From a virus: 37,929 nt of DNA. Positions 2,001 to 37,363 of this stretch are shown here, one piece after another. Location: positions 1-37,929 of IMG/VR virus record IMGVR_UViG_3300042356_000586. One strand, given 5' to 3'. Each line of letters opens with the position of its first letter. Positions within the stretch are counted from its first letter, which is position 1. The notes below the pieces were generated by a model that worked only from the letters and a program-made list of their open reading frames with translations, had not been told where the DNA came from and ran no database searches. The position numbers and the translations under genes were made by a program.

Positions 2001-3821
2001 ATGAGTAAAAAATTCCCTGGTGGTTTAATCACTAAAAACCCAGCAGCAACTACTACCACATCGGCTAAAGGTGTTTGGACACTTGATCAGGTTGCAAGCT
2101 TAGTTAATCAAAATATATGGCCTCGATCACCTGGTGCACCAACTATTGGTACAGCAAGTGTATCGGTGTTAACTGCAAGTGTTCCTTTTACTGCACCTTC
2201 TAGTGTGGGAAGTGCTGCAATTACAAACTATATTGCAACTTCGTCGCCTGGTAATATTACAGGTACAAGCTCTACTTCCCCGATCAGTATTACAGGTTTG
2301 ACGTCAAATACTGCATACACTTTTTCTGTAGCTGCAATAAATGGTGCAGGTACAGGAAGTTCAAGTGCAGCATCTAATAGCATAACAACAGCAGCTGCTC
2401 CTGGTGCACCTACTATTGGTACTGCTACTGTAAGCGGTTTGACCGCTTCTGTACCATTTACCGCGCCAGCAAGCAACGGTGGTTCAGCGATTACTACCTA
2501 TACTGCAACTTCATCTCCGAGTGGTATCACAGGTACATTAAGTCAAGCAGGATCCGGAACGATTACTGTATCAGGATTAACAGGTGGAACAGCGTACACA
2601 TTTACCGTTACGGCTACTAATACTATTGGTACTAGCGCGGCAAGTGCTGCCTCTAATAGTATAACAACTGCAACTGCCCCTGGCTCACCTACTATTGGTG
2701 CTGCAACTGCTACAGGAAAAACCACAGCAACAATCGCCTTTACTGCTCCTGCAAGCAACGGTGGCTCTGCAATTACAACCTATACAGCTACATCATCGCC
2801 AAGTGGAATTACAGGTACATTAAGTCAAGCAGGATCCGGAACGATTACTGTATCAGGTCTAACGGCAGAAACAGCATACACATTTACGGTTACAGCTACT
2901 AATATAGTTGGTACTAGTTCAGCAAGTTCAGCAAGCGGTTCAATAACAACTTTTGCAGTAACTTGTACAACCTATACAACTCCTGGCACCTACACATGGA
3001 TTAGACCATCAGGTATAACATCTGTAACTGCTATTGCAGTCGGACCCGGTGGAGGCGGTAACGGAGGTCGTTCTGTAGATTGTGGTGACAATACTTACCC
3101 ATACGGAGGTGCTGGAGGAGGAGGAGGCGCCCTTGCATACAGGAATTCTCGAAGTATTAGTAGTAACTTAACTGTGGTTGTAGGTGCTGGAGGCACTAAT
3201 ACAGCCTGCACTCCATTAGGTGGCACGGGCAATGCATCTAGAATTAACTCATGCTCTACAGATTGGCTTTATGCAACTCAAGGCGGTGGTGCATCAGGTT
3301 ATTACAATGGGGGCGCTGGAAATATATGTTATGCCGCCGGGACAGCTTTCTTTAGAGGAGGCGCTGGTGGGTCAGGGAGTTACCAGGGGAACAAAGGCCG
3401 TGGCGGTGGAGGCGGAGGCGCTGGAGGATATTCAGCAATAGGTGGTGCAGGAGGCTGCAGTGGTGGACCTGCTTCAGCAAGTACTGGTGGTGGAGGCGGT
3501 GGCGGTGGATCTGGAGGTTCTACAGGTGTTTCATGCACCCGTGGCGCCGGTGGAGGTGGTGTAGGTTTATATGGTGCTGGCAGCAACGGAGCGGCAGGTA
3601 CTACAGGCTCATCATCGAATGGCGGCGGAGGCGGCGGGGGGTCTGGCGGTTGCAGTGGTAGTAGCAACGGTAGTGCCGGTTTCTATGGTGGTGGAGGCGG
3701 CGGAGGTACGCTGGGTCTAGGTAATTTTGGATCCGGAGGAAATGGTGCAGTTCGTATTATCTGGTGCGTCGGAGGTCAACGTGGTACACCTTCATTCCCT
3801 TCAACTAACGTAGGACCTTAA
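2001..3821 (+). CDS. Adhesin-like tail protein 2: FN3 repeats plus glycine-rich domain
   Basis: A 606-residue paralogue of its neighbours, with its ATG directly abutting the previous stop. The N-terminus has GVWTLDQ...NIWP, a G-x-W-T...W-P motif common in marine T4-like phage structural proteins. FN3-like modules lie at about 44-134, 135-228 and 229-320. The latter two are nearly identical in DNA over 47 bases, spaced exactly 282 bases. A YTTPGTYTWIRPSGITSV linker leads into the Gly/Cys-containing region (about 321-590), which ends GAVRIIW...FPSTNVGP. It probably acts at the virion surface in host recognition. The variable Gly-rich parts with constant ends suggest module shuffling. AGGAG at 1991-1995 is its ribosome site. 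Confidence 0.8.
   Translation: MSKKFPGGLITKNPAATTTTSAKGVWTLDQVASLVNQNIWPRSPGAPTIGTASVSVLTASVPFTAPSSVGSAAITNYIATSSPGNITGTSSTSPISITGLTSNTAYTFSVAAINGAGTGSSSAASNSITTAAAPGAPTIGTATVSGLTASVPFTAPASNGGSAITTYTATSSPSGITGTLSQAGSGTITVSGLTGGTAYTFTVTATNTIGTSAASAASNSITTATAPGSPTIGAATATGKTTATIAFTAPASNGGSAITTYTATSSPSGITGTLSQAGSGTITVSGLTAETAYTFTVTATNIVGTSSASSASGSITTFAVTCTTYTTPGTYTWIRPSGITSVTAIAVGPGGGGNGGRSVDCGDNTYPYGGAGGGGGALAYRNSRSISSNLTVVVGAGGTNTACTPLGGTGNASRINSCSTDWLYATQGGGASGYYNGGAGNICYAAGTAFFRGGAGGSGSYQGNKGRGGGGGGAGGYSAIGGAGGCSGGPASASTGGGGGGGGSGGSTGVSCTRGAGGGGVGLYGAGSNGAAGTTGSSSNGGGGGGGSGGCSGSSNGSAGFYGGGGGGGTLGLGNFGSGGNGAVRIIWCVGGQRGTPSFPSTNVGP
2529..2857 (+). repeat. 47-bp direct repeat, 282-bp period, in adhesin 2
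   Basis: Bases 2529-2575 are repeated exactly at 2811-2857, again offset by 282 bases (94 codons). The repeat covers the TGTLSQAGSGTITVSG segment of two neighbouring FN3 modules. A diverged copy lies near 1060-1110 in adhesin 1 and another near 4310-4360 in adhesin 3, so the three genes share related modules. Confidence 0.85.
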
Positions 3822-3823
3822 TA

Positions 3824-5236
3824 ATGCCTAATTTATCAGGACTTTGGACAATCACCCAGCAAATGCAAGCAAAGGGTGCAAATACGTGGCCGGCTACTCC
3901 AGGTGCGCCAACGATCGGTACAGCTACCACTACAAGTGCATCGGCTGTTTCTGTAGCATTTACAGCACCTGCTTGTACCGGTTACCCAGCTAACGGAATA
4001 ACAGGGTATCGTGTTATTTCTACCCCCGGTTGTGTATCAAATACGGGGGCATCTTCTCCCGTTGTTGTTTCTGGATTAACCGGGAATACAGCTTATACAT
4101 TTAAAGCACAGGCAACTAATCCTATTGGGTATGGTCCGTTAAGTGCGTCATCAAATAGTGCAACTACGTGGAGTGTTCCAGGTGCACCGACAATTGGTAC
4201 AGCATCAGTTGCAAGTTCAACGAGTGCGTCTGTACCGTTTACTGCTCCTGCAAGTAACGGTGGTACCGCAATTACATCTTATACGGCTACATCATCACCA
4301 GGTGGTGTTACAGGTACCCTATCTCAAGCCGGTTCAGGAACGATTACTGTATCAGGGTTAACAACAGCTACGGCATATACATTTACGGTTACAGCTACTA
4401 ATACTGTTGGAACTGGCGCGGCAAGCGCGGCGTCCAATAGTGTTACGCCTATCCAAACTTGTGCAGTATATACAACCCCAGGTACATTCTCATGGGTTGC
4501 TCCTGCAGGTGTAACATCCGTCTCACTCGTAGTTGTTTCAGGTGGAGGAGCTGGGACTGCTCCTACAAATAGTTGCCCCGGCACGCACCGTGCAGGGGGT
4601 GGCGGGGCTTTAGCTTATCAAAATGGCGTTGTAGTAACACCAGGTACTTCATATTGCTTTACCGTTGGTGCTGGCGGTACAGGTAGAGGTGGTACAGGCG
4701 GTTCTTCGTACGGTATCTGTAATGGTCTTGTGTCAAGAATTGGGATTACTGGTGGTAGCCTTTGCGCTGGTGGGCAGAAAGGCGGTTTTGTTGGGGGTAA
4801 TGGCGGCTACGGCGGCGGGTATGCTTGCTATGGAGGCACTTGTGGGGGAACTGGCGGCGGCGGCACTGCGGGCTATGCGGGTAATGGTGGCAATGGGGGC
4901 TTAGCAGGTGCTTCGGGTACATCTGGCTCTGGCGGCGGAGGTGGTGGTGGTGGCGGCTCTAACTCAATCGGCGGCGGCGGCGGAGGCGGTGTAGGATTAT
5001 ACGGTCAGGGTTGTTCTGGTGCCGGGGGCTCAACGGGTGCAGGCGGCGGCGGAGGAAGCGGGGGAACCGCAGGCGCTAGTAATGCAGGAATTGGTGGTTT
5101 ATATGGTGGAGGCGGTGGATCGGCTTACAGATGTGGTACCAGTGGAGTAGGAAGAGCTGGTGCTGTTCGCTTTGTCTGGTGTAAGTGTGGTGCTCGAGGT
5201 TCCCCAGCATTCCCATCAACCAACGTTGGTGCATAA
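3824..5236 (+). CDS. Adhesin-like tail protein 3: FN3 repeats plus glycine-rich domain
   Basis: The third tandem paralogue, 470 residues. The N-terminus SGLWTITQ...NTWP matches the WT...WP motif of adhesin 2. Only two FN3-like modules are present (about 27-120 and 121-213), then the YTTPGTFSWVAPAGVTSV linker and a Gly-rich domain (about 214-450) with many Cys. The ending is GAVRFVW...FPSTNVGA. The GVGLYGQGCSGAGG block is shared with adhesin 1 (GVGLLGQGCSGVGG). The start follows a TAGGA ribosome site at 3811-3815 that lies inside the last codons of adhesin 2. It is probably a host-contact protein of the tail, with the number of FN3 units as the main difference from its neighbours. Confidence 0.8.
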   Translation: MPNLSGLWTITQQMQAKGANTWPATPGAPTIGTATTTSASAVSVAFTAPACTGYPANGITGYRVISTPGCVSNTGASSPVVVSGLTGNTAYTFKAQATNPIGYGPLSASSNSATTWSVPGAPTIGTASVASSTSASVPFTAPASNGGTAITSYTATSSPGGVTGTLSQAGSGTITVSGLTTATAYTFTVTATNTVGTGAASAASNSVTPIQTCAVYTTPGTFSWVAPAGVTSVSLVVVSGGGAGTAPTNSCPGTHRAGGGGALAYQNGVVVTPGTSYCFTVGAGGTGRGGTGGSSYGICNGLVSRIGITGGSLCAGGQKGGFVGGNGGYGGGYACYGGTCGGTGGGGTAGYAGNGGNGGLAGASGTSGSGGGGGGGGGSNSIGGGGGGGVGLYGQGCSGAGGSTGAGGGGGSGGTAGASNAGIGGLYGGGGGSAYRCGTSGVGRAGAVRFVWCKCGARGSPAFPSTNVGA

Positions 5237-5833: not shown

Positions 5834-6544
5834 ATGACAAAAAAAACACCTAAAAAAACTTCTTCTAAAATTACTAAAAAATCAGTAGATACAGAAGTTT
5901 TGAATACTCAATTGCAGGTTGCAAATCACTTCCCATGCCCTGTTTACTTAATTGATCGACCAGATTTTCTTGATACTGTTAACGCAGTATCAGAAGAACA
6001 TTTAGAAGGTCGACGTAAAGAGGTAAATCTTAACGAAATTTATCCTGTCTATATGACTGATAATTTCTTTGGTGATCCTCGTATGGCTGAATTTACACAA
6101 TTTGTTGGTGCAACTGCATGGAATATTCTTAAGGAGCAAGGATATGCTATGCAGGACAAAGCAGTACAGTTTGTAGAGATGTGGACACAAGAGCATCATA
6201 AACATTCTGCAATGGATGCTCATGTTCATGGATACGGATCCCAGATTGTTGGTTTTTACTTTTTGGAGACACCTGAAGGTGGATCTAACGTGGTATTCCA
6301 TGACCCCCGGGCTGCTAAAGTTCAAATTGACTTACCTGAACAAGATATGTTTATAGCAACCCCTGCTAGTAAAATGATTAACTTTACTCCTAAGCCAGGT
6401 TTAATGATTTTTGCAAACTCATGGTTAATGCATTCGTTTACCCGTCATGCTGCAGAACTTCCAATTAAATTTGTTCACTTTAACTTAAATGTTATTATGG
6501 CTCCTCAGGCTAATGATCCTGTTCCTGCTGCAGAAGTAATATGA
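5834..6544 (+). CDS. 2OG-Fe(II) oxygenase-like protein (first of two)
   Basis: A 236-residue protein with a Lys-rich N-terminus and a double-stranded beta-helix oxygenase-like core. The motif region DAHVHGYGSQIVGFYFLETP followed by VVFHDPR (about 128-159) and ANSWLMHSFTRH (194-205), then FVHFNLNV, matches the pattern of the phage and marine family of small 2OG-Fe(II) oxygenases. The likely metal ligands are H130 (or H132) and H200. The usual HxD/E acid is replaced here by H-V-H, so the exact iron site is uncertain. The substrate is unknown; such genes are frequent near virion genes in marine T4-like phages. It overlaps the next gene by four bases (ATGA). Confidence 0.7.
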   Translation: MTKKTPKKTSSKITKKSVDTEVLNTQLQVANHFPCPVYLIDRPDFLDTVNAVSEEHLEGRRKEVNLNEIYPVYMTDNFFGDPRMAEFTQFVGATAWNILKEQGYAMQDKAVQFVEMWTQEHHKHSAMDAHVHGYGSQIVGFYFLETPEGGSNVVFHDPRAAKVQIDLPEQDMFIATPASKMINFTPKPGLMIFANSWLMHSFTRHAAELPIKFVHFNLNVIMAPQANDPVPAAEVI

Positions 6545-24191: not shown

Positions 24192-24368
24192 ATGATTCAA
24201 TTTGACTTTGATCTGATTCCAGATCCCGACCGCCACCGTAAGATTAGCTTTGTAAAAAGCGGTCTACGTATTCTAGCTGGCATTGCCCTAATTTGCGGCA
24301 GTCTCATTACTACAGGTATCCTTTTGATCGTTGCCGAGATTCTCGGTATCGTAGAGGAGATCGTTTAA
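24192..24368 (+). CDS. Small single-pass membrane protein
   Basis: A 58-residue ORF with an AGGAG site six bases upstream. The N-terminus is polar (MIQFDFDLIPDPDRHRKISF) and carries basic residues before one hydrophobic helix at about 27-50 (LAGIALICGSLITTGILLIV). The C-terminus is acidic (EIVEEIV-like). Its stop shares a base with the queE ATG (TAATG), so the two are translationally linked. It is a plausible real gene given ribosome site, coupling and composition. Function unknown. Confidence 0.65.
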   Translation: MIQFDFDLIPDPDRHRKISFVKSGLRILAGIALICGSLITTGILLIVAEILGIVEEIV

Positions 24369-25234
24369 TGGCTAAACTAAAAGTAGCAGAACTATTCTAT
24401 TCAATACAAGGCGAAGGTAGGTACATGGGTGTACCATCCGTTTTCCTTCGTACGTTTGGCTGCAACTTTAAATGTGCTGGCTTCGGTATGCCTAAAGGTG
24501 AATTAAGCATGGAGGCTGCTGGTATTGCAGCTACACATGTCTTGGTTACCCCTTTTCAAACGTACAATGCACTACCATTAGTCAGTACTGGTTGTGATAG
24601 TTATGCCAGTTGGATGCCTGAGTTTAAAGACTTAAGCCCTATGCTAACTACAGATGCTGTTGCTGATGCTATCGTTGACTCTCTACCGTACAAGGAATGG
24701 AGAGATGAGCATCTTGTAATTACTGGCGGTGAGCCTCTACTAGGTTGGCAACGGGCATATCCTGACTTGCTCGAGCATCCGAAGATGAGAGCATTAAAAG
24801 AGATTACTTTTGAGACTAATGGTACTCAAGAACTTAGTGAAACGTTTAAAGATTATCTTGATAGATGGGGCTGGGGTGTACCTGGTAATTTCGATCGTCA
24901 GGTAACGTTCTCTGTATCACCTAAGCTATCAGTATCAGGTGAGAAGTGGGATGAAGCTATTAAGCCTGAAATTGTTGCAGACTATGGTAACGTAGGGTAT
25001 GTGTATTTGAAGTTTGTAGTCGCATCTCAAGAAGATGTTAATGAAGCAGAGAAGGCAGTAGAAGCCTATCGCGAGGCAGGCTTTAGAGGGCCGGTATACT
25101 TAATGCCTGTTGGTGGTGTTGAGTCGGTATATCATATGAACAACCGGGCTGTGGCAGAATTTGCCATGAAGAAGGGGTATCGTTATAGCGATCGCCTTCA
25201 AGTGCCTTTATTTAAAAACGAATGGGGAACCTAA
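24368..25234 (+). CDS. queE: 7-carboxy-7-deazaguanine synthase QueE
   Basis: A 288-residue radical SAM enzyme that converts carboxytetrahydropterin to 7-carboxy-7-deazaguanine. ELFYSIQGEGRYMGVPSVFLRTFGCNFKC (8-36) is the QueE N-terminus; LVITGGEPLLGWQ is the radical SAM GGEP motif; ETNGTQE follows. The cluster motif is unusual: C32 and C36 are spaced as C-x3-C, but the expected third Cys two residues later is Phe39. The next Cys, C76 in GCDSYASW, is the likely third ligand. I chose the ATG at 24368, coupled to the upstream stop; the open frame extends to 24293 within the membrane ORF. Confidence 0.9.
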   Translation: MAKLKVAELFYSIQGEGRYMGVPSVFLRTFGCNFKCAGFGMPKGELSMEAAGIAATHVLVTPFQTYNALPLVSTGCDSYASWMPEFKDLSPMLTTDAVADAIVDSLPYKEWRDEHLVITGGEPLLGWQRAYPDLLEHPKMRALKEITFETNGTQELSETFKDYLDRWGWGVPGNFDRQVTFSVSPKLSVSGEKWDEAIKPEIVADYGNVGYVYLKFVVASQEDVNEAEKAVEAYREAGFRGPVYLMPVGGVESVYHMNNRAVAEFAMKKGYRYSDRLQVPLFKNEWGT

Positions 25235-25912
25235 ATGTCATTACAAGTTGGAAAAACGGACGCCGAACTAGGCTATAAAGTAGAAGAGTATCTTATCTCT
25301 AAGGGCGTTCATACCCCTATTGTATTGGATAGACTTGGGGTAAAGGATGAGCGTAAGATTGCAAAGATCGAAAAGAACTTTGCTGTCATTATGGAGACGC
25401 TAGGTCTTGATCTGACTGATGACTCGTTAATGGATACTCCTAAGCGCGTAGCTAAGATGTTTGTACGAGAGATCTTCTGGGGCTTGAAGCCAGAGAACTT
25501 TCCTAAGTGTACCGTTATCGATAATAAGATGGGGTACGATGAGATGGTAGTAGAGAAAGACATTACTATGATGTCTAACTGCGAGCATCACTTTGTTACT
25601 ATCGATGGTAAAGCACATATTGGTTATATACCTAAAGGCAAGGTACTTGGTCTATCTAAGTTAAACCGTATCGTAGAATACTTCTCGCGTCGCCCTCAGG
25701 TGCAAGAACGTATTGCCGAGCAAGTATACCATGCATTGGTCTTTATCCTTGATACCGAAGATGTTGCAGTTGTTATTGAAGGTGTTCATTACTGCGTTAA
25801 GTCGAGAGGGGTTGAAGATCATTCTTCTTCTACCCTTACAGCCAAGCTTGGCGGTTGCTTTAAGAGTGAGCCCGATTGCCGAGCTGAATTTATGTCTTTA
25901 ATTAAGAGGTAA
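25235..25912 (+). CDS. folE: GTP cyclohydrolase I FolE
   Basis: A 225-residue enzyme that opens GTP to dihydroneopterin triphosphate, the first step of 7-deazaguanine synthesis. Zinc ligands are visible as C116 and H119 in SNCEHHF and C187 in HYCVKSRGVED. GLSKLNRIV (139-147) and RRPQVQERI (152-160) are signature blocks. The first about 60 residues are a helical extension. The ATG directly follows the queE stop, so the two are probably cotranslated. Folate synthesis is a possible alternative use, but the flanking que genes point to deazaguanine. Confidence 0.93.
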   Translation: MSLQVGKTDAELGYKVEEYLISKGVHTPIVLDRLGVKDERKIAKIEKNFAVIMETLGLDLTDDSLMDTPKRVAKMFVREIFWGLKPENFPKCTVIDNKMGYDEMVVEKDITMMSNCEHHFVTIDGKAHIGYIPKGKVLGLSKLNRIVEYFSRRPQVQERIAEQVYHALVFILDTEDVAVVIEGVHYCVKSRGVEDHSSSTLTAKLGGCFKSEPDCRAEFMSLIKR

Positions 25913-25915
25913 TTT

Positions 25916-26353
25916 ATGACATGGTATGCAAACTCCGAAGGTCGCTATGGTGCTAATGGTGCCAAAGGTGACCTTGGTGAAGCAATTGTTGCAGAATACT
26001 GTAAGACTAATAATATCTTATTTGAAGATAAGAATGATATAAAAAGTCAAGTAGTACTAAAAATTGATTGCATCATTGATGGAGTTGCTATAGATGTTAA
26101 GTCTAATTACTATATGGGTACCCTTTGTGTAGAGCTGTTTAATAATAAAAAACAGAAGGCGGGGTGGTTGTATACTACAATGGCTAAACAAATTTACGGG
26201 GTAGATGTGGATACTAAATCTATTTACCGCTATAATATAGAAGATATGATAGCTTATGTGAGTATGAATGAGCACCGGGTAAAGAAAACTAAGTACGATG
26301 ATGCCGTACTCTGGGCCCCGGTAGCATTAGATATTATTGAGAAACTACAATGA
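25916..26353 (+). CDS. Small PD-(D/E)XK-type nuclease inside the modification operon
   Basis: A 145-residue protein. The pattern G-x-x-G-E with E22 in AKGDLGEAIVAEYC, D51 in VLKIDCIIDG, and D60-V-K62 in VAIDVKSNYY gives the E...D...(D/E)xK active site of PD-(D/E)XK nucleases. The size is like small resolvases or restriction-type subunits. It lies three bases after folE and overlaps dpdA by four bases (ATGA), so it belongs to the modification operon. Possible jobs are cutting unmodified host DNA, junction resolution or repair at modified sites; the sequence does not decide. Confidence 0.7.
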   Translation: MTWYANSEGRYGANGAKGDLGEAIVAEYCKTNNILFEDKNDIKSQVVLKIDCIIDGVAIDVKSNYYMGTLCVELFNNKKQKAGWLYTTMAKQIYGVDVDTKSIYRYNIEDMIAYVSMNEHRVKKTKYDDAVLWAPVALDIIEKLQ

Positions 26354-27150
26354 AAATTAGCCATGAATCCCCGCTTTGCCTTCTTGATCGGTCTCGTGAT
26401 TATAACGATTACGATTACGCTCTTGTCCACTTGTTCGAGACCGAACCAACCTACCTACAATTCTTTAAAGACTCTCTAGCTCAAGGTCGAACTGTCTTAC
26501 TAGATAATTCTATCTTTGAACTGGGTACTGCCTTTGACTCCGATAAGTTTGCCCATTGGATAGATGAACTCAAACCAACCGAGTATATTATACCTGATGT
26601 ACTTGAGAATGCTCTAGGTACGATGGACAATGCATTAGACTGGAAAGAAAAGTATTCTGATCTACCGGGCAAGACTATTGGTGTCGTTCAGGGTAAGAGT
26701 TATGCAGACCTCGTTCAATGTTATGATTATCTTGATAATGTAATTGGTGTAGATAAGATTGCTATTTCTTTTGACTACTCGTACTACCTCGAAGTCTGTC
26801 CTCATCCAAATAAATGGATGGGTTATGCATTAGGTAGGGTACAAACTTTAACTAGACTATTAAATGACGGCGTTATCAATACTAAAAAACCACATCACCT
26901 CCTTGGCTGTGCGCTTCCAATTGAGTTCATGTTCTATCGTCAAGGCTTCGAATGGTTGGAGTCATTGGATACTTCCAACCCTATTGTTCATGCTATCTTG
27001 GATCTTGGCTATGAGCCTGGTGGATTGGATGCTAAGAAATCCATTAAACTCATTGAGTTACTTAATACTCCTGAACCCTCGGTAGCTACAATGCACACCA
27101 TTAGACATAATATTAAGTACTTTAGATCATATGTTCATGGGTACAGATAA
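26350..27150 (+). CDS. dpdA: DpdA-type DNA guanine transglycosylase
   Basis: A 266-residue TGT-like enzyme predicted to exchange guanine in phage DNA for a free 7-deazaguanine base. Conserved blocks are LLDNSIFELG (50-59), with D52 a candidate catalytic acid, YIIPDVLE (79-86), GVVQG (111-115), HLLGCALPIEF (183-193, the base-binding loop region) and SLDTSNPI (205-212), with D207 the candidate nucleophile. The C-terminus is helical. It is shorter than tRNA Tgt and lacks the zinc site, as in phage DpdA proteins. It is ATGA-coupled to the nuclease and TAATG-coupled to the formyltransferase gene. Confidence 0.82.
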   Translation: MKISHESPLCLLDRSRDYNDYDYALVHLFETEPTYLQFFKDSLAQGRTVLLDNSIFELGTAFDSDKFAHWIDELKPTEYIIPDVLENALGTMDNALDWKEKYSDLPGKTIGVVQGKSYADLVQCYDYLDNVIGVDKIAISFDYSYYLEVCPHPNKWMGYALGRVQTLTRLLNDGVINTKKPHHLLGCALPIEFMFYRQGFEWLESLDTSNPIVHAILDLGYEPGGLDAKKSIKLIELLNTPEPSVATMHTIRHNIKYFRSYVHGYR

Positions 27151-27692
27151 TGAACTGGGTTACATTCTTTAGTCAAACCGGATCAGAGATTGTTGAGCTA
27201 TCTAAGTCTATTGGACGTAAACCAGACTTACTGGTAACTAATAATTTCGAAGATAGAATTAAATTTCACCCAGGCATTCGTGAGCTGGGTGTTACTATTA
27301 TGTCTGCCAAGCATGATATGTTAATGAACTACTTTAGAAACCAGGTGGTATATAATGTTCCTCAGACCCTTATTAGTCTTCATGGCTACCTTCGCATTCT
27401 ACCAGCTGATATATGTGAGAAGTACGAAATATATAACGGGCACCCTGGAGCAATTACTCTCTACCCTGAGTTAAAAGGTAAAGATCCGCAAGAAAAAGTA
27501 TGGCAAGATAATGACAAGTATACTATAATAGGCAGTGTTGTACATAAATGTACTGCAGAATTAGATGATGGTGATGTATTGAAATCTGTTTATGTACGTA
27601 ATAGAAACTATACTAGAGAAGATCTTTATGTATCTCTTAAGATGACCTCTTTATCGGCATGGAATTTCTTCTTGAAAGAAAAGGGTTTATGA
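27150..27692 (+). CDS. dpdN: Formyltransferase-like protein, candidate DpdN
   Basis: A 180-residue formyl-THF transferase-like protein of the PurN/Fmt fold. ISLHGYLRILPADICEKY (75-92) is followed by N96-G-H98-P-G, matching the N-x-H-P active site, then IIGSVVHKCTAELDDGDVL with H132 and the acidic D139/D140 at the place of the PurN catalytic Asp. The N-terminal half is shorter than in PurN. Directly after dpdA, the best fit is DpdN, the enzyme proposed to formylate preQ1 in DNA to formyl-dPreQ1. A role in purine synthesis is less likely given the context. Confidence 0.68.
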   Translation: MNWVTFFSQTGSEIVELSKSIGRKPDLLVTNNFEDRIKFHPGIRELGVTIMSAKHDMLMNYFRNQVVYNVPQTLISLHGYLRILPADICEKYEIYNGHPGAITLYPELKGKDPQEKVWQDNDKYTIIGSVVHKCTAELDDGDVLKSVYVRNRNYTREDLYVSLKMTSLSAWNFFLKEKGL

Positions 27693-28237
27693 GATCTCTT
27701 TGTATGAGAATTGGTATAACGGGCGCGCAATCGGTAGGTAAGACTACTCTTTTAAATGCATTGCGATCAGAAAAATGGTTTAAAGACTTTGTTATATGTG
27801 ATGAGGTAACTCGTCGTGTAAAGAGTTATGGTTTACCCATTAACGAAGAAGGTACTGATAATACTCAACGTCTAATTATGCATGAGCATATAGTTAACGT
27901 GTTTATGCATGATAACATGCTGACTGATCGTACTGCGCTAGATGGTCTGGTATATAGTACGTACCTTTATAAAAATAATAAAATTTCTAGTAGTACTTTA
28001 AAATATGCAAAAGATGTATTTAAAAAAGTATGGAATTCCTATGATTACGTGTTCTATATTGAACCTGAATTTGAAATTGTAGATGATGGGGTACGTAGTA
28101 TTGATAAGCAGTTTAGAGATGAGATAGCTGAACTGTTTGAAACTACTATCGAGAAGGAAAAGTTAAGTATACACAGAGTTAAAGGCTCTGTACGTGATAG
28201 AGTTAATACGATTATAGATTTTTTAGAGGGCAGATAA
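27689..28237 (+). CDS. P-loop nucleoside/nucleotide kinase-like ATPase (NadR-like)
   Basis: A 182-residue P-loop protein. Walker A is GAQSVGKT (12-19), preceded by beta-strand MRIGIT. VICDEVTRRVKSYGLP, with DE.TR like the NadR kinase/AAA-28 family, and MLTDRTALDGLVYS with D-R follow, then DYVFYIEP. The ATG at 27689 overlaps the dpdN stop (ATGA); a later ATG at 27704 would trim five residues. The stop overlaps the queF start. The substrate is unknown, and the coupled position inside the pathway raises the possibility that it acts on a pathway base, nucleoside or cofactor. Confidence 0.72.
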   Translation: MRSLCMRIGITGAQSVGKTTLLNALRSEKWFKDFVICDEVTRRVKSYGLPINEEGTDNTQRLIMHEHIVNVFMHDNMLTDRTALDGLVYSTYLYKNNKISSSTLKYAKDVFKKVWNSYDYVFYIEPEFEIVDDGVRSIDKQFRDEIAELFETTIEKEKLSIHRVKGSVRDRVNTIIDFLEGR

Positions 28238-29160
28238 TGAATAACCAAGATAAATTGAATAAACTGGTAGGGGTCCATCTGGGAAAAGCCGGAGATGGGA
28301 CTGCAGTTAAGCCTTATGTGACTCCTGATGCTGTAGATGCGTCTTTGTTAGTACCTGTTCCGAGAATTTTAAATAGGACAGCATACGGAATTGATGAGTC
28401 AAACTTGCCGTTTGTAGGTGTGGATGCATGGAATGCTTATGAATTTTCTACTCTACTTACAAATGGCTTCCCTGTATCGGGTTGGTTAAAGTTTACATAC
28501 CCATCTGATTCTCCTAATATTGTAGAGTCAAAGTCGGTTAAGCTATATTTGAACTCTTATAATATGGCTAAGTTAGTTACCAATACAGATGATATGTGGC
28601 AAGTAGAAGATAAGATTGCAAGTGATCTATCTGATGCTGTAGGTGCCGAGGTGGATGTGTTTGTTCGTTGGGGTGACGTTGATACAGTTAAGCCTATTGT
28701 TGGAGACTTTACATCATTAGAGCATTACTGTAATATTGGTAATATGACGTTTGATGAGTATAATGAAAGCCCTAATACATTACAAGTAGTACCCAGTATT
28801 GGTCGGTATGAAAAATGGCGATCGTATTCACTTAGATCAAATTGCCGAGTAACTAATCAGCCCGATTGGGGCGATGTGTATGTGCATATTAAAGGGGATA
28901 AGGCAGTTACCCCGGAGTCATTGCTTAAGTATATTGTATCGATGCGTAAAGAGAATCACTTTCATGAAGAGATTGCCGAATGCATTTATAAGCGTCTCTT
29001 TGACTTGCTTCAGCCTGAAGAGTTATTTGTAGCATGCTTGTATACGCGTAGAGGTGGTATTGATATTAACCCTGTACGTGCAAGTAATAACAGAGTGCTC
29101 TACAAATATGGTAATATTGCCGATGTAACTAACTTCTGTACAAAGACTGCAAGACAATGA
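28237..29160 (+). CDS. queF: PreQ0 reductase QueF
   Basis: A 307-residue NADPH-dependent nitrile reductase of the long (E. coli-like) bimodular type, which turns preQ0 into preQ1. ESKSVKLYLNSYN (97-109) is the substrate-binding QueF motif. SNCRVTNQPDWG (201-212) holds the thioimide-forming C203 and acid D210. HFHEE (241-245) and RRGGIDINP (271-279) complete the active site. The start overlaps the kinase stop by one base, and its end overlaps the MazG-like gene by four bases. QueF makes the preQ1 that the DpdN-like enzyme would need. Confidence 0.92.
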   Translation: MNNQDKLNKLVGVHLGKAGDGTAVKPYVTPDAVDASLLVPVPRILNRTAYGIDESNLPFVGVDAWNAYEFSTLLTNGFPVSGWLKFTYPSDSPNIVESKSVKLYLNSYNMAKLVTNTDDMWQVEDKIASDLSDAVGAEVDVFVRWGDVDTVKPIVGDFTSLEHYCNIGNMTFDEYNESPNTLQVVPSIGRYEKWRSYSLRSNCRVTNQPDWGDVYVHIKGDKAVTPESLLKYIVSMRKENHFHEEIAECIYKRLFDLLQPEELFVACLYTRRGGIDINPVRASNNRVLYKYGNIADVTNFCTKTARQ

Positions 29161-29384
29161 CAACTTATAAGATCACAGGACCTGATCCTAACGTAAATGA
29201 GATCTGTAATGAATTTGAGTCAAGAGCCTGTCATGGCTTTGACAAATACGGTGTTACTACCGAGCGTACCGATCTAGATCTAATGCAATGGATTCAGCAT
29301 CTTAAAGAAGAATTAATGGATGCAGTAGTCTATATTCACCGTATTCAAAAAGAATTGAAAGAGAAACAAGATGACTTTAAATGA
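29157..29384 (+). CDS. Small MazG-like / NTP pyrophosphohydrolase-like protein
   Basis: A 75-residue helical protein. FDKYGVTTERTDLDLMQWIQHLKEELMDAVVYIHRIQKEL contains the E-E-x-x-D pattern (E51, E52, D55) of all-alpha NTP pyrophosphohydrolases. Short phage proteins with this KYG...W..H..EEL.DA pattern are common. It might hydrolyse a (d)NTP, or only hold the fold, as it is short for a full MazG. It is coupled to queF (ATGA) and overlaps queC by 14 bases. Confidence 0.65.
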   Translation: MTTYKITGPDPNVNEICNEFESRACHGFDKYGVTTERTDLDLMQWIQHLKEELMDAVVYIHRIQKELKEKQDDFK

Positions 29385-30132
29385 TCCCTTGTCATTACTA
29401 CCCGATGTGAAAGGTTGCGTAGTTATTCTATCTGGTGGTATGGATAGTACCATTGCAATGCGACTTGCTGTAGAGAAATATGGCAAAGAAAATGTATCTG
29501 CATTGACCTTCTATTACGGTCAGAAGCAGAGTCGAGAGATTGATATGGCTAGAATGTCTACTAACCTACTAGGTGTAAACCACAAGGTTGTAGATGCTTC
29601 TTTCCTAGGTGATATTAGTAAAGGCTTTTCTGCCAACGTCGATACCGATATGGCTATGCCGACGATTAAAGATGTCTTAGGTGATCCTAGACCTAAGACA
29701 TATGTACCTAATCGTAATATGATCTTGATGTCAATAGCAGCAGCATTTGCTGAAACGCAGAACGTTGATACAGTTATTTGTGGTTTGCAGGTTCACGATG
29801 AGTATGGTTATCATGACACGACCCAGCGTTGGGTAGATAAGATTAACGATTTGTTATCTGAAAACCGCATCATTAAGATTAAGTTGATTGCACCTTTTAG
29901 TCAACTATCTAAGTACGATGAGTTACTGATCTTGCAAGATCTGGATGGTAGCTTAATGCTTACAACGTTTACTATGACTTGTTATAATCCAGATGCCCAG
30001 CATCGTTCTTGTGGTGAGTGCCCTAGTTGCTCTGAACGTATTGCTAATTTTGCTAAGGTAGGTTATAATGATACAGTTGAGTATTCAAAAGTAATCCCAT
30101 GGCAAGATCTAATCGAGAGAATGAAGGTGTAA
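29371..30132 (+). CDS. queC: 7-cyano-7-deazaguanine synthase QueC
   Basis: A 253-residue ATP-dependent enzyme that makes preQ0 from 7-carboxy-7-deazaguanine and ammonia. The PP-loop SGGMDST is at 21-27. YVPNRNMILMSIAAAFAE (111-128) and CGLQVHDEYGYHDT (137-150) are signature blocks. C204, C214, C217 and C220 in the C-terminal CYNP...HRSCGECPSC form the zinc site. It overlaps the MazG-like gene by 14 bases and is followed after one base by the amidotransferase gene. Confidence 0.94.
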   Translation: MTLNDPLSLLPDVKGCVVILSGGMDSTIAMRLAVEKYGKENVSALTFYYGQKQSREIDMARMSTNLLGVNHKVVDASFLGDISKGFSANVDTDMAMPTIKDVLGDPRPKTYVPNRNMILMSIAAAFAETQNVDTVICGLQVHDEYGYHDTTQRWVDKINDLLSENRIIKIKLIAPFSQLSKYDELLILQDLDGSLMLTTFTMTCYNPDAQHRSCGECPSCSERIANFAKVGYNDTVEYSKVIPWQDLIERMKV

Positions 30133-30133
30133 G

Positions 30134-30751
30134 ATGTGCGCAATAACCGGGTCTTTATATAAAGAAAAACTTAAAGAGTTATATACTCTTAATGCTTATA
30201 GAGGTGAGTTAAACTACTCACTGGCTACTTTTAAACCTTATAAAGGTAAGATAGAGTTTCAAACTTTATTTCAAGATTCCGGTAAAATGCCTGATACACT
30301 AATTGACGGTATACCTTGTAAAGAAGGCGACTTTATAATCGCTCATTCTCAAGCACCTACTACAAATTCGAAGAATATTCACCCAGCAGTGTATGGTGAT
30401 GCCATGCTATGGCATAATGGTATTATTAAGCAGAATAAACTTAGCCCTAATACTTGGGATACTGCTTGGTTACTTGAGCAAATTATTGATTACGGTTGGT
30501 CATCGTTATCAAGGGTAGATGGAACGTTTGCTTGTATTATGTACTTGAATCAAAGTCTTTATATATTCAGAAATGAAATATCACCCCTTTTTATAGACAA
30601 TCGCTTTAACCTATCGTCAACAAAATATGAAGGTAGTGTATCTCTTACACCTAATCGAGTTTGGAAATTAAATTTCAATACAATGTACCTTGATGCTGTC
30701 GCCTATTTTGAGACGATGGAGAACCCTTATTATATTCCGGAGAGTGCATGA
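30134..30751 (+). CDS. Class II glutamine amidotransferase domain protein
   Basis: A 205-residue Ntn-type glutaminase domain. The catalytic nucleophile is C2 after Met removal (MCAITGSLY). Further motifs are AHSQAPTT (70-77, in place of the usual GHxRxxT), LWHNGII (92-98), DTAWLL (109-114) and RVDGTFACIM (127-136). Alone it would release ammonia from glutamine, and it needs a partner. It starts one base after queC, and QueC has the PP-loop fold of AsnB. The pair therefore looks like a split Gat-QueC, which in archaea turns preQ0 to the amidine archaeosine. It may instead simply supply ammonia to QueC. Confidence 0.75.
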   Translation: MCAITGSLYKEKLKELYTLNAYRGELNYSLATFKPYKGKIEFQTLFQDSGKMPDTLIDGIPCKEGDFIIAHSQAPTTNSKNIHPAVYGDAMLWHNGIIKQNKLSPNTWDTAWLLEQIIDYGWSSLSRVDGTFACIMYLNQSLYIFRNEISPLFIDNRFNLSSTKYEGSVSLTPNRVWKLNFNTMYLDAVAYFETMENPYYIPESA

Positions 30752-31322: not shown

Positions 31323-31342
31323 CCTATGCTAACTAACATAGG
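31323..31342 (+). promoter_or_regulatory. Hairpin overlapping the queD ribosome-binding site
   Basis: CCTATG at 31323-31328 can pair with CATAGG at 31337-31342 across an eight-base loop. The 3' arm contains the ATAGG of the Shine-Dalgarno site that sets the queD start. The stem is only 6 bp, so any effect on translation would be modest. Confidence 0.35.
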
Positions 31343-31349
31343 ATTAAAA

Positions 31350-31826
31350 ATGGCAAAAAAATATATCTCAACTAAGACGTATAAGCAGATCGGACCTGTT
31401 GCGTACCGGCAGTGGAGGGCTGATAGTCATTGCAATATGGTGCATGGTTATGCTTTATCATTTCATTTTGAGTTTGAATCTGATACCCTAGATGTGCGTA
31501 ACTGGGTAATGGACTTCGGTGGCTTACGACCATTGAAAGATAAACTTGAAGAATGGTTTGATCATACCTTACTCGTTGCGCAAGATGACCCTAAACGTGA
31601 GTACTTACTTGAGCTTGGTCGTCAAGGTATTGCAAAGATTACAGAAGTAGAAAAGACTGGGTGTGAAGGTCTTGCAGACTTCTTGTACGAATATATTAAT
31701 ACTATCTTCCTACCAAGTTATGGTGAGCAAGATCGCATTTGGTGCTGCAAGGTAGAGGTACGCGAGACGGATTCTAATATGTCTATGCGAGTTGGTCATC
31801 AAGAAGATAACGAGTATCAAGATTGA
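31350..31826 (+). CDS. queD: 6-carboxytetrahydropterin synthase QueD
   Basis: A 158-residue enzyme of the 6-PTPS family that makes carboxytetrahydropterin from the FolE product. ADSHCNMVHGYALSFHFEFE (24-43) carries zinc ligands H27 and H32 and catalytic C28. MDFGGLRPLKDKLEEWFDHTLLV is the second hallmark. VEVRETDSN contains the conserved Glu. The third zinc His of the usual HGH is Tyr34. I chose the ATG at 31350, seven bases after ATAGGA; an in-frame ATG at 31326 has no ribosome site. A 71-base gap separates it from the dUTPase gene. Confidence 0.9.
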   Translation: MAKKYISTKTYKQIGPVAYRQWRADSHCNMVHGYALSFHFEFESDTLDVRNWVMDFGGLRPLKDKLEEWFDHTLLVAQDDPKREYLLELGRQGIAKITEVEKTGCEGLADFLYEYINTIFLPSYGEQDRIWCCKVEVRETDSNMSMRVGHQEDNEYQD

Positions 31827-34793: not shown

Positions 34794-35387
34794 ATGAATA
34801 TACAAAAATCATATCAATGGCATCTAGAAAGTGTAAAGACGGAGACATGGGTGTATGTTGAAGATGTATTTACCTCAGAAGAAATTGATAAAATTATTGA
34901 ATCTGGTAAAAAAGAAGACATTATTGAAGCAGAAATTGGTACTTCTAATAAAATAAATAAAAATATTAGAAATACAAAAATATCATGGATTAACAGCAGT
35001 GATAAGGATAATGACTGGCTTTTTCTACGGTTATCTGACGTGATTAATTACACTAATAATAAATTTTTCAATTACGATATTACAACAATTCAAACCTTAC
35101 AGTATTCTATATACCATAAAGGAGGATTCTTCAGCGAGCATATAGACTTAAGCAAAGTTTCAGCAATGGGGGTTCGCAAGTTAAGTTTTTCTGTTATGCT
35201 TACAGACCCAGAAGAATATGAGGGAGGGGAGCTGCTTTTAAAAATAGATTCATTTCCAATCACCCCGCCTAATAAAAAAGGTACGGTTATATTTTTTCCA
35301 TCTTACGTACTTCATGAAGTTACACCAGTAACAAAAGGTACTCGTAAAACATTAGTAGGTTGGGTTCTCGGACCTAAATTTAGATGA
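34794..35387 (+). CDS. 2OG-Fe(II) oxygenase, prolyl-hydroxylase type (second)
   Basis: A 197-residue prolyl-4-hydroxylase-like dioxygenase. The iron triad is H116 and D118 in FFSEHIDLS and H174 in VLHEVTPV. R184 in KGTRKTLVGWV is the 2-oxoglutarate anchor. SFSVMLTDPEEYEGGELLL is typical of the PKHD type. Unlike the first oxygenase (5834), all active-site residues are present. The substrate is unknown; protein or nucleic-acid hydroxylation are both possible. It overlaps the next gene by four bases. Confidence 0.85.
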   Translation: MNIQKSYQWHLESVKTETWVYVEDVFTSEEIDKIIESGKKEDIIEAEIGTSNKINKNIRNTKISWINSSDKDNDWLFLRLSDVINYTNNKFFNYDITTIQTLQYSIYHKGGFFSEHIDLSKVSAMGVRKLSFSVMLTDPEEYEGGELLLKIDSFPITPPNKKGTVIFFPSYVLHEVTPVTKGTRKTLVGWVLGPKFR

Positions 35388-35959
35388 TTATTAAAAAAAG
35401 TGAATTAAAAATACTTCCAGCTAATGAATTATATCAAGGGTTTGCTTCTAAGTTTAATTTTGATGAAGTAGATGCATCGATGCTAACAAACATTATGATG
35501 GATAGAATGACGGAGATGGGCGGGGTTGCGTTATCTGCTCCTCAGGTCGGTCTTAATATGTGTATGTTTGTGATGGGTATTGATCAAGCAAGAGTAGAGG
35601 TATTTAATCCATCTATTGTTTCATACTCAAAAGAAGAAGCTTTAATGAATGAGGGTAGTCTTACTTTTCCAGGTATGCTGGTGATTATAAAAAGACCTAT
35701 AGCAGTTACAGTAGAATATTATAATAAAAAAGGTGAACTAATACAAAATGAGTTTCAAGGACTAACAGCTAGAATCTTTCAGCATGCCTTTGATCACCTT
35801 CAGGGTACTACTATAAAAGATAAGGTATCTAAATTGAAATGGGATCTAGCAACTAAGCGTCTTAATAATTATAAACAAAAACTAGTCAATAAGTATACTC
35901 AGAAAAAACTTCTTGAAATTAAGAAAGCAATGAAAGAACAAACAAATGGCAATACCTAA
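35384..35959 (+). CDS. def: Peptide deformylase-like protein with lost active-site residues
   Basis: A 191-residue Pdf-fold protein. Motif 1 GGVALSAPQVG (46-56) is good, with Q54 kept. Motif 2, usually EGCLS, reads EGSLT (90-94), so the metal-binding Cys is Ser92. Motif 3, usually QHExDH, reads QHAFDH (133-138); both metal His (134, 138) remain but the catalytic Glu is Ala135. The fold is clear, yet normal deformylase activity is doubtful. Related phages carry seemingly intact def genes, so this looks like a repurposed or decaying copy. A basic helical tail follows motif 3. Confidence 0.8.
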   Translation: MIIKKSELKILPANELYQGFASKFNFDEVDASMLTNIMMDRMTEMGGVALSAPQVGLNMCMFVMGIDQARVEVFNPSIVSYSKEEALMNEGSLTFPGMLVIIKRPIAVTVEYYNKKGELIQNEFQGLTARIFQHAFDHLQGTTIKDKVSKLKWDLATKRLNNYKQKLVNKYTQKKLLEIKKAMKEQTNGNT

Positions 35960-36341
35960 AGAATACTTAGATTCTGAATTTGATTTTGGTTTCTCAACAT
36001 CTGATGATGATAGCGTTGCTGTACAAGCAACCCCAGCGGTAACCTCTCAAGAAATCTCAGAGCCTATTTTAGAAAGAATTCGTAACCTGGAAGTTAATGT
36101 TGGAGAGGTCTTAAATATTTTAGAGCGATTAGAGAACGCATCAACGCCTTTAGATACCGATGATTATAAAGCGCTGATTGAGAAAGATGTTAAGGCAAAG
36201 CTTACCGCTCTTGAGAAAATGATCTTACCCCTTCTGGTTAACCTAATGAAGAACCCAGAGAAGGATACAATTAAGTGGCCAGGTCGTGCACCTATTATTG
36301 AAAAGCAAATTGAGAAGATCTTAGCTATTACGCGCTCTTGA
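35946..36341 (+). CDS. Conserved hypothetical protein of marine T4-like phages
   Basis: A 131-residue acidic, mostly helical protein. The N-terminus is Asp/Ser-rich (LDSEFDFGFSTSDDDS), a likely coiled coil lies at about 38-68 (ISEPILERIRNLEVNVGEVLNILERL), and the C-terminus DTIKWPGRAPIIEKQIEKILAITR is a conserved end block in relatives as I recall. It starts 14 bases inside the deformylase-like gene. Its last 21 bases overlap the end of the minus-strand NUMOD3 gene (tail to tail). Function unknown. Confidence 0.65.
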   Translation: MAIPKEYLDSEFDFGFSTSDDDSVAVQATPAVTSQEISEPILERIRNLEVNVGEVLNILERLENASTPLDTDDYKALIEKDVKAKLTALEKMILPLLVNLMKNPEKDTIKWPGRAPIIEKQIEKILAITRS

Positions 36342-36869
36342 TTTTCTATGCTCGTCTATATGATAGAGTCCAATCTCAACGGAGTCATAATCTCTTCCTA
36401 ATTGATACCCAGGAGGTAAGCTGTTTCTATCTCTAACTCTTGTCTCTTTATCTGATCTAGAATCGTATGCCCAATAAGAGTCTTTGGTATGCTGATTACC
36501 TAATTTCTTTTCAGCCATTACATCCTTTGTTTCTTCGGTATGCTTCTTACCCTGAAAGTTGGATCTACCTTTTAACCCAGCTGATATCTTCTGCCTTGTT
36601 GCCTCGTCTCTAGGCTTACCCATCTTTGCCTCTGACATCTTACGCTTGGTCTCATCTGACATAGGCTTACGTACTTTTTGATACCATTCAACAAACTTGT
36701 ACATTCCGTAACTTCGTTGCAGTCTAGTCTTAATAACATCTACTGCAGAATTATCTCGTACAGAGTTAAGTAACTCGTAACGATGGCCATACTTTGCTCT
36801 CACCTTGTCAACAGGTTGATCAGAAATTAAAATAGTCTTTGTTACTGCGTAACAGTAGAAGTGAATCAT
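36321..36869 (-). CDS. NUMOD3-containing homing-endonuclease-like protein
   Basis: The only convincing minus-strand gene, 182 residues from the ATG at 36869. Three NUMOD3-type DNA-binding repeats are visible: MSDETKRKMSEAKMGKP, RDEATRQKISAGLKG and KKHTEETKDVMAEKKLG (about 85-140). The C-terminal LPPGYQLGRDYDSVE resembles the ends of phage homing endonucleases. The N-terminal 80 residues show no clear GIY-YIG or HNH site, so it may be a nuclease remnant or a binding protein. The frame is open upstream to 37070 but there it is antisense to another gene, so I used the later ATG. Confidence 0.75.
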   Translation of the reverse strand: MIHFYCYAVTKTILISDQPVDKVRAKYGHRYELLNSVRDNSAVDVIKTRLQRSYGMYKFVEWYQKVRKPMSDETKRKMSEAKMGKPRDEATRQKISAGLKGRSNFQGKKHTEETKDVMAEKKLGNQHTKDSYWAYDSRSDKETRVRDRNSLPPGYQLGRDYDSVEIGLYHIDEHRKSRARNS

Positions 36870-36878
36870 TAAATGGTA

Positions 36879-36884
36879 TATAAT
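36879..36884 (+). promoter_or_regulatory. Possible -10 box in the divergent gap
   Basis: TATAAT lies in the 44-base gap between the minus-strand NUMOD3 gene and the next + strand gene, 29 bases before the ATG. No convincing -35 hexamer is present. The gap must hold promoters for one or both divergent genes. Confidence 0.35.
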
Positions 36885-36913
36885 TAGTCTATCAATATTT
36901 AGGAGATCTTGAG

Positions 36914-37363
36914 ATGATGATGCCTGCCGGAAAATATTATTGTGGCGACCTCTGTTACGTAATGCATGATGAGTGGGATGAGGTATGTGGGTTGTTCTTT
37001 GAGGGGCGAGAGGACCATGGCTGTAACCAAGGAGTCTTTCAGTTGAAAGACGGCCGTAAATTTGCATCATTTAATACCAAGTGGGGAGATGGAGGCTACC
37101 GTGATCAATATGGTCGCAGCTATAGCGTTGATGCTGGTCTGATTGGGTGTATTGCAATTAAAGATACAGATTTAGATTCAGGTGATAACTTTACTCGAGG
37201 AGGCCAGATTATAGAATTTGAACGTGACTTTGAAGTACACGGTGGAACCGGTCTATCTCGTAGCGAGTGGGATGGTGTTATTAAAATCGGACACATCGAA
37301 ATTAATACAAATGGAGATGATAATTATGAAGAGGAAGAGGAAGAGGAAGAATACGAGGATTAA
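36914..37363 (+). CDS. Conserved hypothetical protein with acidic tail
   Basis: A 149-residue protein beginning MMMPAGKYYCGDLCYVMHDEWDEVC, a start seen in small proteins of marine phages (PxGxYxxGDLCYV...W). The body has many Gly, Asp and Tyr residues (WGDGGYRDQYGRSYSVDAGLIGCIAIKD). The C-terminus is a run of Glu (NYEEEEEEEEYED). AGGAG at 36901-36905 sets the first of three consecutive Met codons as start. The role is unknown; the acidic tail could mimic nucleic acid, which is speculation. Confidence 0.65.
   Translation: MMMPAGKYYCGDLCYVMHDEWDEVCGLFFEGREDHGCNQGVFQLKDGRKFASFNTKWGDGGYRDQYGRSYSVDAGLIGCIAIKDTDLDSGDNFTRGGQIIEFERDFEVHGGTGLSRSEWDGVIKIGHIEINTNGDDNYEEEEEEEEYED

What the first reader, a model, noticed from the sequence alone, without database searches (positions are those of the whole stretch)
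27150..27692. Formyltransferase next to dpdA predicts formyl-preQ1 in DNA
The protein has a PurN/Fmt-like N-G-H-P site and a D-D-G segment, and shares a base with the dpdA stop. With QueF present to make preQ1, the most direct prediction is 7-(formylaminomethyl)-7-deazaguanine, made by a DpdN-type enzyme. The NHP-to-NGHP spacing and short N-terminal half are unlike purine-pathway PurN.
Basis: partly seen in the sequence, partly recalled or inferred. Interest (0 to 1): 0.75.

Follow-up and report, generated by a model that had tools for sequence, protein, structure and literature searches.

The report
Phage DNA-base formyltransferase (DpdN type)
This uncultured T4-like phage carries a small formyl-transferring enzyme, locked in a gene cluster that makes and inserts a modified guanine, that most likely caps the base preQ1 with a formyl group; the modification and its predicted enzyme are already described, so this is a well-supported further member with hundreds of relatives rather than a new kind of system.

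Summary
Window 27150-27692 (+) encodes a 180-residue protein with the formyltransferase fold (Pfam E=6e-7; AlphaFold pLDDT 92; best PDB matches are PurN structures). The catalytic Asn96-His98-Asp139 is kept in all 119 full-length relatives. The Arg-Ile folate-site motif is kept almost throughout. The residues that mark PurN (GNGSN loop, Glu173) are replaced by other fixed residues (Q-T-G-S-E, Ser167).

Across IMG/VR the gene always travels with queF (76/76 assessable loci) and dpdA (75/75). None of 12 phage records tested, 9 carrying this gene, has PurD or PurM/L. The neighbouring gene has a tRNA-guanine transglycosylase/DpdA fold. Its closest named relative without a formyltransferase is in Campylobacter phage CP220, which also lacks QueF and carries dADG. 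QueF-bearing KVP40 and pf16 lack the formyltransferase.

From memory, fdPreQ1 and DpdN were named by Cui et al. 2023, which I could not open. Whether formylation occurs on free preQ1 or in DNA is undecided.

The least explained part is a conserved NadR-like kinase between the formyltransferase and queF, also beside CP220 dpdA.

The parts
24293..25234 (+). queE, 7-carboxy-7-deazaguanine synthase (radical SAM); the listed TTG start is probably too early
   Evidence: PHROG 2076 QueE-like E=4.7e-56
25235..25912 (+). folE, GTP cyclohydrolase I
   Evidence: Pfam PF01227 E=3.3e-60
26350..27150 (+). dpdA, DNA guanine transglycosylase related to those of Campylobacter phage CP220 and Flavobacterium phage immuto
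   Evidence: Model pLDDT 94.1; Foldseek top hits all TGT (E=4e-7), also DpdA 7ui4 E=1.4e-5; 53% identical to immuto DpdA, 43.5% to CP220
27150..27692 (+). Formyltransferase (the finding), DpdN type; catalytic N96, H98, D139; folate-site R82-I83
   Evidence: Pfam E=6e-7; model and Foldseek; residue mapping; 119/119 relatives
27689..28237 (+). NadR/deoxynucleoside-kinase-like P-loop kinase; start at 27689 (ATGA overlap with the formyltransferase stop) or 27704
   Evidence: Pfam AAA_28 E=2.9e-17; profile hits NadR and dNK; present in 70/76 formyltransferase loci; beside dpdA in CP220
28237..29160 (+). queF, NADPH-dependent preQ0 reductase giving preQ1
   Evidence: Pfam QueF_N 1.3e-31 and QueF 4.2e-20; ESKS-x-K motif in 106/106 distinct QueF of formyltransferase loci
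29371..30132 (+). queC, preQ0 synthase
   Evidence: Pfam QueC E=1.1e-50
30134..30751 (+). Glutamine-amidotransferase-like protein next to queC; role here unknown
   Evidence: GATase_6 weak E=0.0045; phrog_12378; also beside queC in KVP40 and pf16
31326..31826 (+). queD, 6-carboxytetrahydropterin synthase
   Evidence: Pfam PTPS E=2.5e-15; PHROG 2389 QueD-like 2.8e-40

Best explanation
The protein is a 10-formyl-tetrahydrofolate-dependent formyltransferase of the DpdN type. FolE, QueD, QueE and QueC make preQ0 from GTP; QueF reduces preQ0 to preQ1 (7-aminomethyl-7-deazaguanine); the formyltransferase puts a formyl group on the free amine of preQ1, giving 7-(formylaminomethyl)-7-deazaguanine; DpdA exchanges guanine in the phage DNA for preQ1 or for formyl-preQ1. 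Shown here: fold, catalytic residues, strict genomic linkage to queF and dpdA, loss of PurN signature, absence of other purine genes tested. Inferred: the substrate, the product, and the order of formylation and insertion.
For: Fold and family. Catalytic N96/H98/D139 in all 119 full-length relatives; R82-I83 nearly always. PurN loop GNGSN replaced by Q-T-G-S-E, PurN Glu173 by Ser in 11 of 12 compared. QueF in 76/76 assessable formyltransferase loci, DpdA in 75/75; all 72 DpdA-fetched and 71 QueF-fetched assessable loci also have it. Where dpdA lies 6 kb away (L173, L175) queF stays adjacent; in L181 queF is directly upstream instead. QueF in these loci keeps the ESKSxK motif, 106/106. CP220, which has the DpdA relative but no QueF, has no formyltransferase and carries dADG at 100% of dG (PMC8306585). 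No PurD or PurM/L in 9 formyltransferase-bearing phage records, with positive controls. Cui et al. 2023 (NAR 51:9214, cited in PMC12783734) named fdPreQ1 and predicted DpdN; this content is from memory.
Against: No chemistry was measured. QueF does not guarantee dPreQ1: Vibrio phage nt-1 had none detected (PMC6884629); its relative KVP40 carries this QueF type. The protein has no nucleic-acid-binding domain and is near neutral (pI 5.6-8.5), which fits the free base better than DNA. The published DpdN sequence could not be compared. Loci are not independent: some phages are assembled several times and the top-80 lists hold close relatives.
Confidence: 0.85

Rival explanations
1. A phage PurN: it formylates GAR to boost purine synthesis, as annotated in immuto and as known in cyanophages, and sits in this cluster by chance.
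For: Best fold matches and GenBank/PHROG names are PurN.
Against: PurN loop GNG(S/T)N and Glu173, kept in E. coli and three cyanophage PurN, are replaced by different fixed residues here; 18-24% identity to PurN structures; linkage to queF/dpdA in every assessable locus; no PurD or PurM/L in the phages; the only genome-collection hit (one patterned scan of 84,980 species) is itself a dpdA-queF cluster.
Confidence: 0.05
2. Formylation happens on free preQ1 and DpdA inserts the finished formyl-preQ1, rather than on preQ1 already in DNA.
For: Minimal PurN-sized domain with no extra nucleic-acid-binding domain such as Fmt has (general knowledge), near-neutral pI; queF adjacency kept when dpdA moves away.
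Against: The published name, dPreQ1 formyltransferase (from memory), assumes the DNA-level order; no data here bear on DpdA's base preference.
Confidence: 0.45
3. The enzyme acts on another amine, for example a product of the amidotransferase-like protein next to queC, or on a protein or tRNA.
For: An amidotransferase-like gene of unknown role lies in the cluster; substrate cannot be read from sequence.
Against: KVP40 and pf16 keep that gene and queF without any formyltransferase, and no other free aliphatic amine is made by the known enzymes of the cluster.
Confidence: 0.08

Closest known systems
DpdN, predicted dPreQ1 formyltransferase, with fdPreQ1 (Cui et al. 2023, NAR 51:9214; content from memory, paper not held)
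   Same: Formyltransferase encoded with DpdA and QueF; predicted product 7-(formylaminomethyl)-7-deazaguanine in DNA.
   Different: No difference found; the reference DpdN sequence could not be opened, so identity is inferred from description.
Flavobacterium phage vB_FspM_immuto_2-6A gp204 (annotated as phosphoribosylglycinamide formyltransferase)
   Same: 45% identity over 97%; same order dpdA - formyltransferase - kinase - queF.
   Different: An extra small gene between dpdA and the formyltransferase; other host and genome. No queC match in the 20 kb stretch held.
PurN, GAR formyltransferase (E. coli and cyanophage)
   Same: Fold, catalytic Asn-His-Asp, Arg-Ile pterin-site motif.
   Different: Substrate-phosphate loop and Glu173 replaced; genomic context unrelated to purine synthesis.
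Campylobacter phage CP220 dADG system
   Same: Related DpdA (43.5%) with the same kind of kinase next to it.
   Different: No QueF and no formyltransferase found; base is dADG (PMC8306585).

Membership tests
DpdN (predicted dPreQ1 formyltransferase) | Formyltransferase fold with catalytic Asn-His-Asp | tested here: met
DpdN (predicted dPreQ1 formyltransferase) | Encoded with DpdA and a preQ1-making QueF | tested here: met
   Window and 76/76, 75/75 loci; QueF NADPH motif 106/106
DpdN (predicted dPreQ1 formyltransferase) | Sequence match to the published DpdN | not tested
   Paper not held; immuto gp204 may be that sequence, unverified
DpdN (predicted dPreQ1 formyltransferase) | Produces fdPreQ1 in DNA | not testable with these tools
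   Needs LC-MS
PurN (GAR formyltransferase) | Catalytic Asn-His-Asp and folate site | tested here: met
PurN (GAR formyltransferase) | GNG(S/T)N loop and Glu173 for GAR | tested here: not met
   Window SQTGSE and Ser167; fixed across the family
PurN (GAR formyltransferase) | Purine-pathway gene context | tested here: not met
   No PF02844 or PF02769 in 12 phage records, controls positive
DpdA (DNA guanine transglycosylase), neighbour | TGT-like fold | tested here: met
DpdA (DNA guanine transglycosylase), neighbour | Inserts a 7-deazaguanine into DNA | not testable with these tools
   Relative in CP220 lives in a phage whose dG is fully replaced by dADG (PMC8306585)

The most novel reading that the evidence does not exclude
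The conserved NadR/deoxynucleoside-kinase-like protein between the formyltransferase and queF is an unrecognised part of this DpdA lineage, working at the nucleotide level so that modified G can replace all G, in both the formyl-preQ1 phages and the dADG phages of Campylobacter.
Probability: 0.15. Interest if true: 0.7.

Novelty: new member of a known kind. Interest (0 to 1): 0.42.

Why it matters
The linkage ties a formyltransferase to preQ1 in hundreds of environmental phages, and gives sequence-level marks (SQTGSE loop, Ser in place of PurN Glu173) that separate these enzymes from PurN, under which name they are deposited. Formyl-preQ1 in DNA would be a capped base that may evade restriction enzymes, and the kinase offers a testable lead on how whole-genome guanine replacement is achieved.

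Tried and rejected
PurN as the identity: rejected on residues and context. Bacterial chromosomal homologues: one patterned scan of genome contigs gave a single hit, itself a dpdA-queF cluster. A DpdA relative without formyltransferase among IMG/VR contigs: the CP220 query found only the Campylobacter phages and weak fragments. The kinase as an obligatory partner of the formyltransferase: rejected, 6 loci and one 160 kb record lack it. Papers on DpdN, fdPreQ1 and Immutovirus: none of use held. Pfam gave no family for DpdA; the fold search settled it.

Full report
Check of the observation. The ORF 27150-27692 (+, 180 aa) exists as described, its ATG sharing base 27150 with the TAA of dpdA. Pfam finds Formyl_trans_N at E=6e-7 over residues 74-163. 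AlphaFold on 16 relatives gives pLDDT 92.3 and Foldseek returns PurN, ArnA, Fmt and sugar N-formyltransferases, best E=4e-11. NGHP lies at 96-99 and LDDG at 138-141; both fall on catalytic positions of PurN.

Neighbours. 26350-27150 has no Pfam family, but its model (pLDDT 94.1) matches tRNA-guanine transglycosylases and the DpdA structure 7ui4. queF, queC, folE, queE and queD are clear by Pfam or PHROG. A NadR-like kinase sits between the formyltransferase and queF. Start and stop codons overlap along dpdA - formyltransferase - kinase - queF, as expected of translationally coupled genes. The virus is T4-like (Gp23 E=6.5e-146, T4-type terminase), a 37.9 kb fragment.

Relatives. Two scans of IMG/VR gave 33 close loci and then 517 encoded relatives, of which the best 80 were kept. 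Named phages with the gene are only the Flavobacterium immuto group, 45% identity, where it is annotated as PurN and stands in the same order. Of formyltransferase loci with enough sequence, 76/76 have queF and 75/75 dpdA; 70/76 have the kinase. Starting instead from DpdA or QueF, 72/72 and 71/71 assessable loci have the formyltransferase. These counts are not independent: contigs recur between sets and lists hold the nearest relatives. In L173 and L175 dpdA is 6 kb away while queF stays adjacent.

Contrasts. Campylobacter CP220 has a 43.5% related DpdA with the kinase but no QueF or formyltransferase found, and has all its dG replaced by dADG (PMC8306585). KVP40 and pf16 have QueF, QueC and the amidotransferase-like gene but no formyltransferase. 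So the gene is found only where both this DpdA lineage and QueF occur.

Residues. Against E. coli and three cyanophage PurN, the family keeps N106, H108, D144, H137 and R90-I91 (E. coli numbers) but replaces G9-N10 and N13 by Q/N, T/S and E, and E173 by S in 11 of 12. Asn and His are present in 119/119 full-length relatives; Asp matched the strict pattern in 109, and the other ten printed sequences show the same Asp with Val-Leu-His in place of Val-Val/Ile-His. That positions 11-13 and 173 contact GAR in PurN is my own knowledge of the PurN structures, not a result here.

Purine context. PurD (PF02844) and the AIRS_C domain of PurM/PurL (PF02769) are absent from 12 phage records, 9 of them with the formyltransferase, while controls are positive.

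Mechanism. Most likely: preQ0 is made by FolE, QueD, QueE and QueC, reduced by QueF to preQ1, formylated from 10-formyl-THF, and placed in DNA by DpdA. QueF keeps the ESKSxK motif in 106/106 distinct sequences; that this motif marks NADPH-dependent reductases is general knowledge. Order of formylation and insertion is open: the small near-neutral protein fits the free base, the published name fits DNA. A caution is Vibrio phage nt-1, in which no dPreQ1 was detected (PMC6884629) though its relative KVP40 has QueF.

Known work. Cui et al. 2023 (NAR 51:9214) is cited in held papers but could not be opened. From memory it reports fdPreQ1 in phage DNA and predicts DpdN as its formyltransferase. I take this window's gene as a further DpdN-type member, not a new kind.

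Noticed in passing
27689-28237: NadR/deoxynucleoside-kinase-like protein between the formyltransferase and queF, conserved in most loci and also beside dpdA in Campylobacter CP220; missing from 6 loci and from a 160 kb record (L172). Role unknown.
   Followed up: partly
35384-35959: Peptide deformylase homologue (Pfam E=2e-33) whose motifs read NEGSLTF and QHAFDH, so the usual metal-ligand Cys and catalytic Glu appear replaced by Ser and Ala.
   Followed up: partly
25916-26353: Small protein of unknown family directly before dpdA, present in most close loci; possibly a nuclease-like fold, not tested.
   Followed up: no
30134-30751: Separate glutamine-amidotransferase-like gene next to queC, kept in KVP40 and pf16 too; its product is not accounted for by the formyl-preQ1 pathway.
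   Followed up: no
36321-37070 (-): NUMOD3-containing, homing-endonuclease-like ORF on the opposite strand.
   Followed up: no
318-5236: Three tandem long glycine-rich genes with repeated Thr/Ser/Val-rich modules, probably tail fibre or adhesin paralogues.
   Followed up: no
34794-35387 and 5834-6544: Two 2OG-Fe(II) oxygenase family proteins (Pfam).
   Followed up: no
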